Shown here piece by piece: positions 361 through 7,874 of a stretch of 9,469 nt of DNA. The stretch spans positions 2,805 through 12,273 of the forward strand of contig PLZL01000231.1 in the NCBI GenBank assembly GCA_003152145.1, in the 5' to 3' direction. Under the pieces are notes generated by a model, which saw only the letters and a list, made by a program, of their open reading frames with translations, did no database searches and had not been told where the DNA came from. The translations under genes were made by a program, and so were the position numbers. The stretch comes from Limisphaerales bacterium. GTDB lineage: Bacteria; Verrucomicrobiota; Verrucomicrobiae; Limisphaerales; UBA11358. The first letter of the stretch is position 1. Every line of letters begins with the position of its first letter.

Positions 361-437
361 CGGGACGTAGCGTAGCTTGGTAGCGCGCTTGCTTGGGGTG
401 CAAGAGGTCGTGAGTTCAAATCTCACCGTCCCGACCA
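361..437 (+). tRNA. tRNA-Pro (anticodon GGG)
   Basis: The 77-nt sequence folds as a full cloverleaf. The acceptor arms CGGGACG (361-367) and CGTCCCG (427-433) pair over 7 bp, followed by discriminator A and encoded CCA (434-437). The anticodon stem CTTGC/GCAAG encloses the loop TTGGGGT, giving anticodon GGG at 395-397, which reads proline CCC codons. The T arm carries GTTCAAAT, the usual TTCRA-type loop, with stem GTGAG/CTCAC. The gene is intact, but its 3' part from 388 on is also one copy of the 53-bp element repeat. The present 3' half therefore probably came from the element and restores the gene on integration. The original 3' half is at 7822-7871. Confidence 0.95.
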
Positions 438-440
438 TTT
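388..440 (+). repeat. Left attachment site (attL), 53-bp direct repeat in tRNA-Pro
   Basis: Bases 388-440 match 7822-7874 exactly over 53 bp. They differ at the flanking bases (387 G against 7821 A; 441 A against 7875 T). The repeat starts at the 5' strand of the anticodon stem and runs through the T arm, acceptor strand, CCA and TTT. This is the classic layout for a tyrosine-recombinase element that rebuilds the tRNA 3' end. The anticodon stem arms CTTGC and GCAAG (388-392, 400-404) form an inverted pair around the 7-nt loop, the expected shape of core sites around a 7-bp crossover. Confidence 0.92.
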
Positions 441-443
441 AAT

Positions 444-460
444 TAACATTGATAACATTG
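444..460. repeat. Tandem 9-bp-spaced repeat next to attL
   Basis: TAACATTG occurs at 444-451 and again at 453-460, with a 9-bp period. It lies between the left attachment repeat and the integrase gene, where recombination accessory proteins such as an excisionase often bind. Only two copies exist, so chance is possible and the role is a guess. Confidence 0.35.
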
Positions 461-510
461 GCGAAAGTAAAGATTCGGCCAGTTGTCAAAGCGGGCCTGT
501 TTCTGCTGGC

Positions 511-528
511 GACACACTTTTGACACAG
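511..528. promoter_or_regulatory. Left pair of GACACA repeats: candidate arm-type integrase sites
   Basis: GACACAC (511-517) and GACACAG (522-528) are direct repeats spaced 11 bp apart. The same 11-bp pairing recurs near the right end (7621/7632 and 7650/7661). In lambda-type systems the integrase N-terminal domain binds such repeated arm sites at some distance from the core site; here they lie 71-88 bp from the attL repeat. The second copy overlaps the integrase start codon, so binding could also repress the gene. This is inference from position and pattern. Confidence 0.55.
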
Positions 529-1860
529 AAACCGGCGGAATTTGAGCCGGAAAGCGACCGAGCCGTGAGATTCCCAAAACGCATCAAATACCGTGGCAAG
601 ACGCTCGCCGTGATTTACGGAAGGTGCAAGGGGCGCGAATCATACCGCGTCGCGTGGCAGGTGGCAGGACAGCGGCGCATGGCGTCTTTCCCGTCCTACT
701 CACTCGCCAAACGCCATGCCGACGCGCTGGTGAAGGACTTGTCCAAAGGCTCGCAAGTCACCGCCCTGCATCCCGCGCAAGCCCGCGACGCGCTGGCCGC
801 TCTGGAACGTCTAGCGGACTTCTATCGCGCCACGGGTCGCCGTGTATCGCTGCTGGCCGTCGCCAGTGAATACGCCGAGGCTGCCCGGAAGCTGGACGGG
901 CGGACGCTGGCCGAGGCAGTGGAAGGTTTCCTGTCCAACGTGGCCACAATCAAACGGGTGGACTTGAACGCAGCCATTGAGCAGTTCGTCGAAAGCCGGA
1001 AATTGAGGACGGTTGCAAAGGACGGCAAACGTTCGCAATTGTCACCCGGCTGGCATTACATCGTCGCCATGTGGTTGCGCGAATTTGCGAAAGCATTTCC
1101 CGGCCACGCCGTTTGCGATTTGAGCCGTGAACACCTCACCGCCTATGTCAACGGCCACGGTGACGTTTCGCCCCGCACGCGGAACGGCAGGCGCAACGCG
1201 GTGAAGATGTTCCTGAAATGGGCAGTTGAACGCGATTACTTGGCCGCGAACCACCGTTTGCTTGTAGCTGATGGCATGGCGAAAGAGGTTGAGGATTTAG
1301 GCGAAGTGGAATTTTACACGCCGAAAGAACTGCGCGCCTTGCTCGAATCCAGCCAACGGCCAGAATTTCGATCCCTGCTTCCTGTTATCGCATTGGGCGG
1401 ATTAGCGGGACTGCGATTGCAGGAAATCGCGCGGCTGACCTGGGCGGATGTTTGGCGCGTGCCGGGGCATATCGAAATTGCGGCGACGAAAGCCAAGACA
1501 CGCCAGCGCCGCCTTGTGGAAATCGTTCCGGCTTTGGCCGCGTGGCTTGAACCGTTTTGCGGATTGGACGGCAGGGTTTGGGGCGACACACTGGACAATT
1601 TTCACGACCTGTTTGGCAAGTTGCGGGATGACGTGGGAATACCGGCGCGGCGCAACGGACTGCGCCATGCCTTTTGCACCTATCACTTCGCATTGAACGC
1701 CAACGAAAACCAGACCGCGCAACAAGCGGGCAACTCCCCCGCGATGATTCACGCGCATTACAAGGGACTCGCCACAAAAGCCGAGGCGGAAAAATGGTTC
1801 AACGTCATGCCGCCGGACGCGGCAAAGAATGTCATTCCGCTGCAAAAGATCAACCGATGA
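520..1860 (+). CDS. int: Tyrosine recombinase (site-specific integrase)
   Basis: This 446-residue protein is the likely integrase that joins the element to tRNA-Pro. Residues about 15-75 form a basic N-terminal region of the kind I associate with verrucomicrobial integrases ('SYRVAWQVAGQRRMASF'), possibly arm binding. A core-binding SAM-like domain follows at about 150-245. The catalytic domain, about 265-430, shows Arg299 in 'GLAGLRLQEIARLTW', a lysine hairpin near 324-326, Arg382 in 'NGLRHAF', and the nucleophile Tyr414 in 'HAHYKGL'. The usual first His of box II is Asn379 and the late His/Trp position is Asn405 ('GNS'); such changes occur in this group, so activity is still likely. The start is TTG at 520: no ATG precedes Met54 in frame, and the frame stays open back into the tRNA. 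The stop overlaps the next start as ATGA, implying coupled translation. Confidence 0.95.
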   Translation: MTQKPAEFEPESDRAVRFPKRIKYRGKTLAVIYGRCKGRESYRVAWQVAGQRRMASFPSYSLAKRHADALVKDLSKGSQVTALHPAQARDALAALERLADFYRATGRRVSLLAVASEYAEAARKLDGRTLAEAVEGFLSNVATIKRVDLNAAIEQFVESRKLRTVAKDGKRSQLSPGWHYIVAMWLREFAKAFPGHAVCDLSREHLTAYVNGHGDVSPRTRNGRRNAVKMFLKWAVERDYLAANHRLLVADGMAKEVEDLGEVEFYTPKELRALLESSQRPEFRSLLPVIALGGLAGLRLQEIARLTWADVWRVPGHIEIAATKAKTRQRRLVEIVPALAAWLEPFCGLDGRVWGDTLDNFHDLFGKLRDDVGIPARRNGLRHAFCTYHFALNANENQTAQQAGNSPAMIHAHYKGLATKAEAEKWFNVMPPDAAKNVIPLQKINR

Positions 1861-6767: not shown

Positions 6768-7046
6768 TCAGACGGCAAGTTTTGAATCGCACCACTGCGG
6801 CTTCTGATTCAACACGCAAACCTTGTGTTTTATCCCGTTATCCTCGGCCAGCCGAACCAAGCGACAGAGAAATGGTAAGGCACTTTCTAAAGGTATTTGC
6901 CACAAACATTCGGTGGGCATTTCAAGCCCTGAAACTTGCTTTGCTAACTTGCTGGCTTCATTTTGAAAGGACTGCCAGTATGCAAATGCACGTTTATCTT
7001 CAGAGGTTGGTTTGTCTGCTACGAATAAGGCGTATGATGTGTTCAT
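6768..7046 (-). CDS. Unknown small protein (92 aa), first of a minus-strand pair
   Basis: The ATG at 7046 is preceded by GGAA as a weak ribosome site. The 92-residue protein starts with a short beta strand ('NTSYALFVADKP'), then a helix ('DKRAFAYWQSFQNEASKLAK'), a strand region ('TECLWQIPL') and a second helix ('LPFLCRLVRLAEDNGIKHKV'), ending with a strand. This looks like a compact alpha/beta fold with four cysteines, but I do not recognise a family or catalytic motif. It runs against the rest of the element and forms a two-gene unit with the 85-aa gene downstream. A small unknown pair in an integrative element may be a toxin-antitoxin, a defence module or a regulator; nothing in the sequence decides which. 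Confidence 0.65.
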   Translation of the reverse strand: MNTSYALFVADKPTSEDKRAFAYWQSFQNEASKLAKQVSGLEMPTECLWQIPLESALPFLCRLVRLAEDNGIKHKVCVLNQKPQWCDSKLAV

Positions 7047-7094
7047 GTTCCATGCGGTCTATTAACCCAAAAATCCCGCGTCAGGGCAACAATT

Positions 7095-7275
7095 TCACGT
7101 CGTAGCGAGTTGCGATGCCGCCAGCGGCTCGACTTCGCTTTCAATCATCCGTGCCTTCTTGTAACGCGCCAGCCCAAATCATAGTCCGCCTGCAAGCCCG
7201 TTCACAGTTCCGCCGTCGTGGTAATAAACGCGCCAGCCGCAACGCCATGTCCACCGTGATGCCGCACTTCAAGAA
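7095..7275 (-). pseudogene. higA: Broken higA-type antitoxin gene remnant
   Basis: Read on the minus strand, three frames in order match the C-terminal two-thirds of HigA-family XRE antitoxins. First comes 'LKCGITVDMALRLARLL' (usual form: GKRGITADTALRLARYF). After a shift comes 'TTAEL*TGLQADYDLG' (usual: GTTAELWxxLQAxYDLE), with a TGA where Trp is expected. After a second shift comes 'LARYKKARMIESEVEPLAAS', ending at the TGA at 7097-7095. So there are two frameshifts and one nonsense change, and the N-terminal DNA-binding half is missing or unrecognisable. No higB toxin is visible at 7276-7620, where it would be expected. It is a dead toxin-antitoxin remnant, ending 48 bp before the minus-strand gene at 7046. 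Confidence 0.75.
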
Positions 7276-7620
7276 AACATCTTTGCTTAAAAGCGGGAAT
7301 CATACGCGAATGGCTGACGTGAAATTCCACCTGCCACCGGGTAGGGCGTGGGGACGGGTCGCCCCGGCGAAAAAAAGGATTCCTTAAATTTCAAACTGAC
7401 CCGGATAGTCTCACGGAAGGCGAGCGCGTGACGCGGCGTGACGGTGCCGCCCGGCGACTGGCACAAGGCCAGTGTCGGCAAGTCTCCGCAACCGCTGGCG
7501 ACCGCCAAGCCGCCGGAAGCGCGGTTGACCGGCTCGACAGCAACAGGCCAGACACTCGCCACGATGCCCGCCCGACTTCGCGTGGCTTCACAAGACGCGC
7601 TTTGATTGGCTGCCCGGCAT
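7276..7620. other. No gene supported; GC-rich apparently non-coding stretch
   Basis: Open frames exist on both strands (up to about 112 codons) but all are rich in Arg, Ala, Ser and Pro with no recognisable fold, motif or ribosome site, and they overlap one another. The only local structure noted is a 6-bp hairpin, ACTGGC/GCCAGT (7457-7473). The region may contain decayed remains of the upstream half of the higBA locus, but I could not align any part of it to HigB. Confidence 0.5.
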
Positions 7621-7693
7621 GACACAGCCTCGACACAGAATCAGGCAATGACACAACGCTGACACAGCCAAAACACCGACACAGCCCGACACG
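7621..7693. promoter_or_regulatory. Right cluster of GACACA repeats: candidate arm-type integrase sites
   Basis: Six direct copies lie in 73 bp: GACACAG at 7621, 7632, 7661 and 7678, GACACAA at 7650, and GACACG at 7688. Start-to-start spacings are 11, 18, 11, 17 and 10 bp, so they form three pairs about one helical turn apart. The pair GACACAGCCTCGACACAG closely resembles the one at 511-528 by the integrase. The cluster ends about 130 bp from the right attachment repeat. A run of six T follows at 7695-7700. Binding by integrase or excisionase is inferred; iterons for replication are an alternative. Confidence 0.65.
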
Positions 7694-7821
7694 CTTTTTT
7701 CTACCGTTTGTTGCCCACAGAAGCAAAATATAGCTTGCAATCATGCGGGCAATGTCGTAGTGTCATGCGCAGGTAAGTAAAGAGAAAGGCATTTATGATT
7801 AACGATGAAAACACTGTTTCA

Positions 7822-7874
7822 CTTGCTTGGGGTGCAAGAGGTCGTGAGTTCAAATCTCACCGTCCCGACCATTT
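7822..7874 (+). repeat. Right attachment site (attR): displaced 3' part of tRNA-Pro
   Basis: This is the second copy of the 53-bp repeat, identical to 388-440. It holds the anticodon stem-loop, T arm and 3' acceptor strand with CCA, but no D arm or 5' acceptor strand, so it is not a tRNA gene. It continues into TTTTTATTC (7872-7880), a T tract suited to end the original tRNA transcript; the left copy lacks this tract. It marks the right edge of the element. Confidence 0.92.

What the first reader, a model, noticed from the sequence alone, without database searches (positions are those of the whole stretch)
388..7874. Precisely bounded 7,434-bp integrative element in tRNA-Pro(GGG)
A perfect 53-bp repeat of the tRNA 3' part flanks a self-contained set of integrase, excisionase-like, primase-like and unknown genes. 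The pre-insertion locus can be predicted: bases 361-440 joined directly to 7875 onward. No packaging or transfer genes are visible, so how it spreads is open; it may be a phage satellite or depend on a helper.
Basis: partly seen in the sequence, partly recalled or inferred. Interest (0 to 1): 0.7.

Follow-up and report, generated by a model that had tools for sequence, protein, structure and literature searches.

The report
Mobile element that splits its integrase
This is a small piece of mobile DNA inserted in a tRNA gene of what is probably a Verrucomicrobia bacterium, and its integrase gene appears whole, with a promoter-like sequence and start codon, only when the DNA is a free circle, so inserting itself would cut the gene from its own switch, a trick so far described in archaea.

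Summary
In detail: a perfect 53-bp repeat (388-440, 7822-7874) bounds a 7,434-bp element in tRNA-Pro(GGG). Six related genomes carry the uninterrupted tRNA beside one or both right-hand host genes. It encodes integrase, excisionase-like HTH, PrimPol-type primase, an orphan 355-aa protein and cargo; no capsid, terminase or relaxase gene was recognised.

At the right end lie a promoter-like sequence (7735-7763) and an ATG (7795) whose frame runs through the tRNA-derived core into the integrase when the ends join. The circle would encode a 499-aa integrase; in the integrated copy the first start is TTG 520. The same in-frame ATG occurs in 24 of 24 bounded elements of this integrase clade (other two frames together 11 of 48; 22 of 24 give a full-length ORF); 0 of 5 bounded elements outside it show an open fusion. 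Paired arm-type sites sit at both ends.

Best reading: a satellite-like element (terminase found in 3 of 23 sister elements, capsid and relaxase in none, by an imperfect search) with a bacterial 'suicidal' integrase that shuts itself off on integration. A 2021 review calls such integrases exclusively archaeal. Circle, promoter activity and helper are inferred.

The parts
361..437 (+). tRNA-Pro(GGG), target gene, kept whole at the left end
   Evidence: ARAGORN; Rfam tRNA E 3.9e-13
388..440 (+). attL copy of the 53-bp repeat (core, tRNA 3' end plus TTT)
7822..7874 (+). attR copy of the 53-bp repeat
510..529 (+). left pair of arm-type site candidates, GACACA at 511 and 522 (11-bp spacing)
   Evidence: GACACAG 7 in window versus 0.66 expected (two of the 7 are internal); same geometry with other motifs in L001 and L002, partly in L007 and L160
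7620..7692 (+). right pairs of arm-type site candidates, GACACA at 7621/7632, 7650/7661, 7678 plus degenerate GACAC at 7688
7735..7763 (+). outward promoter-like sequence TTGCAA-17-TAGTGT
   Evidence: such a pair upstream of the right-end ATG in 11 of 20 elements versus 1.6 expected
7795..7821 (+). ATG and the first 9 codons of the integrase in the circular form
441..1860 (+). integrase reading frame after the core; with 7795-7874 it makes one 499-aa ORF in the circle; in the integrated form the first start is TTG 520 (446 aa)
1857..2924 (+). orphan 355-aa protein, start overlapping the integrase stop
   Evidence: 59 homologues, no Pfam, PHROG, NCBIfam or PADLOC match; AlphaFold mean pLDDT 89, no PDB or viral match at E<=0.001
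2962..3258 (+). excisionase-like HTH protein
   Evidence: phrog_66 E 2.8e-7, HTH_17 E 1e-4
3255..3527 (+). 90-aa conserved partner of the primase
   Evidence: 72-84% identical in L001, L002, L005, L006; not matched in L003, L004 (contig edge), L007
3545..4741 (+). PrimPol-type primase (BT4734-like)
   Evidence: PF08800 E 1.6e-19; PrimPol model E 9.8e-24; 145 homologues among the candidates scored
4738..4965 (+). 75-aa HTH-like protein
   Evidence: 60-64% identical in L002 and L006; only weak phrog_34910 E 0.001
5258..6280 (+). cargo with signal-peptide-like start (GTG 5258 assumed)
   Evidence: no Pfam family above chance; 5195-5363 is 90% identical to the start of a different cargo in L001
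6503..6778 (-). small ORF, unknown
   Evidence: best family E 0.042
6768..7046 (-). small ORF, unknown
   Evidence: no family
7268..7568 (.). right-end stretch 71.5% identical to L001, no assigned gene; possible origin or packaging region (guess)
7875..8291 (-). host flank gene 1
   Evidence: matched beside the empty tRNA-Pro in 4 of 6
8381..9412 (-). host flank gene 2 (343 aa)
   Evidence: found in 87 of 97 relatives of G001

Best explanation
It is a satellite-like integrative element, by its relatives of Verrucomicrobia subdivision 3, whose integrase gene contains the attachment site. In the circle, a promoter at the right end and the ATG at 7795 drive a 499-aa integrase whose residues 10 to about 27 are spelled by the tRNA-derived core. 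Integrase binds paired arm sites at both ends and recombines the core into tRNA-Pro(GGG). That act leaves promoter and start codon 7.4 kb away, at attR, so full-length integrase is no longer made: integration shuts itself off. Excision then needs integrase from elsewhere, or a shorter product read from the tRNA side (TTG 520 or GTG 565), plus the excisionase-like HTH. The primase copies the circle; spread is most likely in particles of a helper phage. Shown by sequence: boundaries, empty sites in relatives, arm-site geometry, the in-frame fusion and its clade-wide conservation. Inferred: the circle, promoter activity, shut-off, excision route, replication role, helper.
For: Exact repeat and tRNA; empty sites. 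Right-end ATG in the integrase frame in 20 of 20 bounded elements, then in 4 of 4 found afterwards (L160; L164, L170, L172): 24 of 24, against 7 and 4 of 24 in the other two frames, Fisher p 5e-11; 23 of 24 open 50 aa into the integrase; 22 of 24 give an ORF of 460-509 aa, as long as a whole integrase. Shuffled right ends give 6.5 of 20. In 23 of the elements the right-end codons are 77% polar or small residues in this frame, 39% and 49% in the others. Promoter-like pair upstream in 11 of 20 versus 1.6 expected. In a 105-row tree the 23 fused and 6 not-fused rows lie on two sides of a branch with SH-aLRT 100 (76 rows unlabelled). Catalytic-region residues are invariant in 17 aligned integrases.
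Against: No read, transcript or protein of the circular form was seen; of 39 homologous proteins read in full (39 of 120 listed, 1280 found) none clearly begins with a right-end peptide, many visibly read through a tRNA, and P0189 is undecided. L107 has a stop right after its core and L164 one at codon 217. A pN/pS test on 7 pairs does not single out this frame (0.50 in frame, 0.84 and 0.50 in the others). Codon-position variation is weakly coding-like in codons 2-6 and flat before the core. Left-side openness alone is weak: 50 of 54 in frame, but 36 of 54 in one other frame. 9 of 20 elements lack the promoter pattern scanned for. The integrated copy is not always without a start: in some tRNA-Leu(GAG) elements an ATG lies in the core itself, and in L002 the frame is open to an ATG upstream of the tRNA. 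The cut removes only the N-terminal 53 residues in the window, so a working shorter integrase may be made.
Confidence: 0.7

Rival explanations
1. Transcriptional switch only: the right-end promoter drives integrase across the joined ends, as Pcirc does in ICEclc, but translation starts inside the integrase (TTG 520 or GTG 565); the N-terminal extension is incidental.
For: Outward promoter-like pair; ICEclc's outward-facing Pcirc is listed as promoter of intB13 (passages of PMC2892462 and PMC9286271).
Against: Does not explain 24 of 24 ATGs in the integrase frame, open through cores read in different frames, nor the polar make-up of the right-end codons.
Confidence: 0.15
2. The right-end ATG belongs to a separate short leader peptide or is chance; the integrase is an ordinary one expressed from the integrated copy.
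For: Shuffled right ends give an in-frame ATG in about a third of cases; pN/pS test inconclusive; some integrated copies keep an in-frame ATG.
Against: 24 of 24 versus 11 of 48 in the other frames, p 5e-11; no open fusion in 5 of 5 bounded elements outside the clade: L007, L186, L187, L199, L202.
Confidence: 0.12
3. For spread: an element mobilised by a conjugative helper (integrative mobilisable element), not by phage particles.
For: Size, integrase, primase and lack of packaging genes in the window would also fit NBU-like mobilisable elements (recalled).
Against: Relaxase PF03432 was found inside none of 23 bounded sister elements while terminase was found inside 3. Other relaxase families and oriT were not searched, and the genome search missed one known terminase.
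Confidence: 0.15
4. An immobile remnant of a prophage or satellite.
For: No structural or packaging gene recognised; gene-poor stretch about 7050-7620.
Against: Repeat is perfect over 53 bp; the genes are open; relatives 85-94% identical in primase or integrase occur elsewhere.
Confidence: 0.1

Closest known systems
Archaeal suicidal (SSV-type) integrases: SSV1, pTN3, pT26-2
   Same: The attachment site lies within the integrase gene; integration splits it into a part next to the promoter and original start and a part with the catalytic domain, for pTN3 beside a tRNA gene (passages of the review PMC8371274).
   Different: Bacterial relatives; PF16795 (Phage_integr_3) not matched; only a short leader plus the core-coded stretch is cut off; an excisionase-like gene is present. 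The review states that such recombinases are found exclusively in archaea.
ICEclc Pcirc
   Same: Outward-facing promoter listed for the integrase gene intB13 (passages).
   Different: Here the start codon too lies at the far end, in frame.
Integration-dependent immunity of mycobacteriophage BPs
   Same: attP inside a coding gene so that integration changes the product (abstract of PMC4557955).
   Different: There the repressor's C-terminus, here the integrase's N-terminus.
Phage satellites (PICIs, PICMIs)
   Same: Small element with integrase, excisionase-like regulator and primase and few or no particle genes (passages of PMC10111431; abstract of PMC10803314).
   Different: Other host phylum, PrimPol-type primase, helper unknown.

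Membership tests
Suicidal (SSV-type) integrases | attachment site inside the integrase coding frame | tested here: met
   (by sequence; translation not shown)
Suicidal (SSV-type) integrases | Phage_integr_3 domain PF16795 | tested here: not met
   Pfam scan, E up to 1: PF00589 and four others, no PF16795
Suicidal (SSV-type) integrases | archaeal host | tested here: not met
   primase relatives are Verrucomicrobia subdivision 3 or Limisphaerales records; the window's own host is inferred
Suicidal (SSV-type) integrases | integrated copy inactive | not testable with these tools
   needs an expression or recombination assay
Tyrosine recombinase | integrase family match and conserved catalytic region with C-terminal Tyr | tested here: met
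   phrog_1 E 1.5e-23; PF00589 E 4e-4, under the cut-off; R299, K/R box, NGLRH and Y414 region invariant in 17 rows (motif roles recalled)
Phage satellite | integrase, excisionase/AlpA-like regulator and primase | tested here: met
Phage satellite | no genes for a full particle | tested here: met
   no structural PHROG among the window's nine proteins scanned
Phage satellite | packaged by a helper phage | not testable with these tools
   helper unknown
Phage satellite | packaging gene or site of its own (not universal) | tested here: inconclusive
   none recognised in the window; terminase in 3 of 23 sister elements
Integrative mobilisable element | relaxase or oriT | tested here: inconclusive
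   no relaxase among window proteins; PF03432 in 0 of 23 sisters; oriT not searched

The most novel reading that the evidence does not exclude
A bacterial clade of self-disrupting tyrosine integrases: the attachment site lies in the integrase gene, promoter and start codon sit at the opposite end, and part of the enzyme's N-terminus is spelled by whichever tRNA gene the element targets. Integration is a built-in off-switch, shared by satellites across Verrucomicrobia and evolved separately from the archaeal case.
Probability: 0.68. Interest if true: 0.83.

Novelty: new variant of a known kind. Interest (0 to 1): 0.75.

Why it matters
The review of archaeal recombinases read here in passages says that integrases disrupting their own gene exist only in archaea and calls their persistence paradoxical. 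A large bacterial clade with the same logic, in elements that also carry an excisionase-like gene, would make that question testable in a second system, give a simple rule for finding intact elements (right-end ATG in frame with integrase), and mark this 7.4-kb island as a functional mobile element rather than a relic.
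Full report
Boundaries. The window holds one tRNA, tRNA-Pro(GGG) at 361-437, and one long exact repeat, 53 nt at 388-440 and 7822-7874. The element is 7,434 bp. GC is 0.533 inside and 0.547 in the flanks, so composition does not mark it.

Empty site. The right-hand host protein (343 aa) was found in 87 of 97 relatives of G001. Of 34 loci scanned for tRNAs (L008-L041), seven had one: six tRNA-Pro(GGG) and L018, called tRNA-His. Re-fetched with more flank, L059-L063 and L065 show the uninterrupted tRNA beside the 343-aa flank gene; the first right-hand gene was matched in four of these six, not in L062 and L063. The left-hand gene piece was matched in none of the ten regions fetched. 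L056, L057 and L058 have only a truncated tRNA 3' end there, preceded by a shared palindrome-like sequence: another element type seems to use the same tRNA.

Genes. Integrase 520-1860 in the integrated form, orphan g2 1857-2924, excisionase-like HTH 2962-3258, g4 3255-3527, PrimPol-type primase 3545-4741, g6 4738-4965, cargo about 5258-6280, two small minus-strand ORFs. g2 has 59 homologues and no known family; modelled at mean pLDDT 89 without a structural match at E<=0.001. It was not matched by tblastn in the seven primase-bearing loci L001-L007; in L001, L002, L006 and L007 other ORFs stand after the integrase.

Relatives by primase. One scan of the species-genome collection with a 44-row primase alignment gave 7 loci, all Verrucomicrobia subdivision 3 or Limisphaerales; virus contigs gave none. 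Among 388 relatives of G001, 12 had a primase match at E<=1e-20: seven matches in six genomes at 65-89% identity, one at 45%, six partial. Primases of L001-L007 are 64-89% identical to the window's and g4, where found (4 of 7), 72-84%, while the integrases are 21-52% (L004 has none before its contig edge): the replication and integration modules have been shuffled. L001 sits in tRNA-Leu (26-bp repeat), L002 in tRNA-Gln (30 bp), L007 in tRNA-His (27 bp); L005 lies by tRNA-Pro(GGG) but no repeat was found.

Arm-type sites. In the window GACACA recurs at 511/522 and 7621/7632, 7650/7661, 7678 (degenerate 7688); GACACAG occurs 7 times, 0.66 expected, though two of the seven (2107, 4116) are internal. 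L001 and L002 show one left and three right pairs of TTGCAC spaced 10-11 bp; L007 shows a left and a right pair of GTGCAA and one more copy; L160 shows CACTAAA copies with one 11-bp pair. Same layout with different letters fits integrase arm sites; binding is inferred.

Integrase across the attachment site. Joining the ends in silico gives one open frame from ATG 7795 through the 53-bp core to the integrase stop at 1860, 499 aa. In the integrated form the first start is TTG 520, itself inside an arm-like site. To test this, 60 integrase loci (126 of 388 genomes matched at E<=1e-40; loci picked by hand from the better matches with room around them) were fetched. With W (the window), L001 and L002, 54 had a tRNA directly upstream, and the integrase frame was open through the tRNA 3' end in 50 of 54; the other frames in 4 and 36 of 54. 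Twenty elements could be bounded by a repeated tRNA 3' end (16 nt asked, 26-53 found; sizes 5.5-17.9 kb). All 20 had an ATG in the integrase frame at the right end, open to the core; the other frames in 6 and 3 of 20. Four further elements found later also showed it: L164, L170, L172 (the 3 bounded of 13 more loci of the clade) and L160 from IMG/VR. Total 24 of 24 versus 7 and 4 of 24; p 5e-11; 23 of 24 open 50 aa into the integrase. Read to the first stop, 22 of 24 give 460-509 aa; L107 stops after its core (27 aa) and L164 at 216 aa. Shuffling expects 6.5 of 20. Right-end codons of 23 elements are rich in polar and small residues in this frame only (0.77 versus 0.39, 0.49). Two coding tests were weak: codon-position differences 0.50/0.61/0.67 for codons 2-6 and 0.64/0.64/0.64 before the core; pN/pS 0.50 in frame, 0.84 and 0.50 out of frame. 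A TTGnnn-16..18-TAnnnT pair lies upstream of the ATG in 11 of 20, 1.6 expected.

What the integrated copy keeps. In the window no ATG remains before the integrase domains. Elsewhere one can: tRNA-Leu(GAG) cores such as L105's spell an in-frame ATG, and L002's frame is open to an ATG upstream of its tRNA. So the separation of the native start and promoter is general in the set, a complete lack of starts is not.

Controls. Of 27 more distant integrases (about 28-35% identity), four could be bounded (L186, L187, L199, L202); with L007 that is five, and none has an open in-frame fusion (two have an ATG but stops follow). L005's frame is closed right before its ATG. Five unbounded distant loci (L176-L179, L183) are open through their tRNA end and remain undecided. 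In a 105-row quick tree the 23 fused and 6 non-fused rows fall on two sides of a branch with SH-aLRT 100; 76 rows are unlabelled, L005 and L186 are long branches, L160 is not included.

How it spreads. In 22 records searched, terminase large subunit (phrog_2, E<=1e-5) was found in 12, capsid PF05065 in 10, relaxase PF03432 in 2. Placed on the 22 bounded elements of these genomes, terminase lies inside L135 and L142, capsid and relaxase inside none; L160 (about 14.1 kb) has large and small terminase matches and no PF05065 or PF03432 match. So terminase was found in 3 of 23 sisters. L007, which shares the primase, encodes a terminase large subunit (phrog_2 E 7e-17), DUF5681 and a weak Mu-like protease match; the genome search did not list that terminase, so its zeros are soft. 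None of these was recognised in the window's own element. A phage-satellite life is the best guess.

Comparison with the known. [quoted passage not shown] ICEclc has an outward promoter for its integrase (passages); phage BPs places attP in its repressor gene (abstract). The present clade works like the archaeal case but is not a member: PF16795 is not matched.

Verdict. The element is an ordinary-sized satellite-like island; its integrase arrangement is not ordinary. The sequence case is strong, the biochemical case untested.

Noticed in passing
L064 6670-6747 (also L018 1387-1464): The tRNA beside the 343-aa flank gene, where relatives have tRNA-Pro(GGG), has anticodon GTG and is called tRNA-His, though 88% alike to part of the window's tRNA-Pro.
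   Followed up: no
L056 5201-5231, L057 6848-6873, L058 1542-1570: Truncated tRNA-Pro 3' ends beside the same host genes, preceded by a shared TTTTCAATG...TGAAAA palindrome-like sequence: a different integrating element family seems to use this tRNA.
   Followed up: partly
window 5195-5363: 90% identical to the start of a different, repeat-rich secreted-type protein in L001: different cargo bodies behind a shared upstream region and signal peptide.
   Followed up: partly
window 7268-7568: Right-end stretch without a recognised gene, 71.5% identical to L001; possible origin or packaging region.
   Followed up: no
window 1857-2924: Orphan protein family with a confident predicted fold and no structural relative found; other unknown ORFs follow the integrase in sister elements.
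   Followed up: partly
L160 6309-6869 and 8833-9312: Two small-terminase-like genes in one 14-kb element with a terminase large subunit but no PF05065 capsid match.
   Followed up: no
L002 10785-11825: RhuM family protein (PF13310, E 7e-114) as cargo.
   Followed up: no
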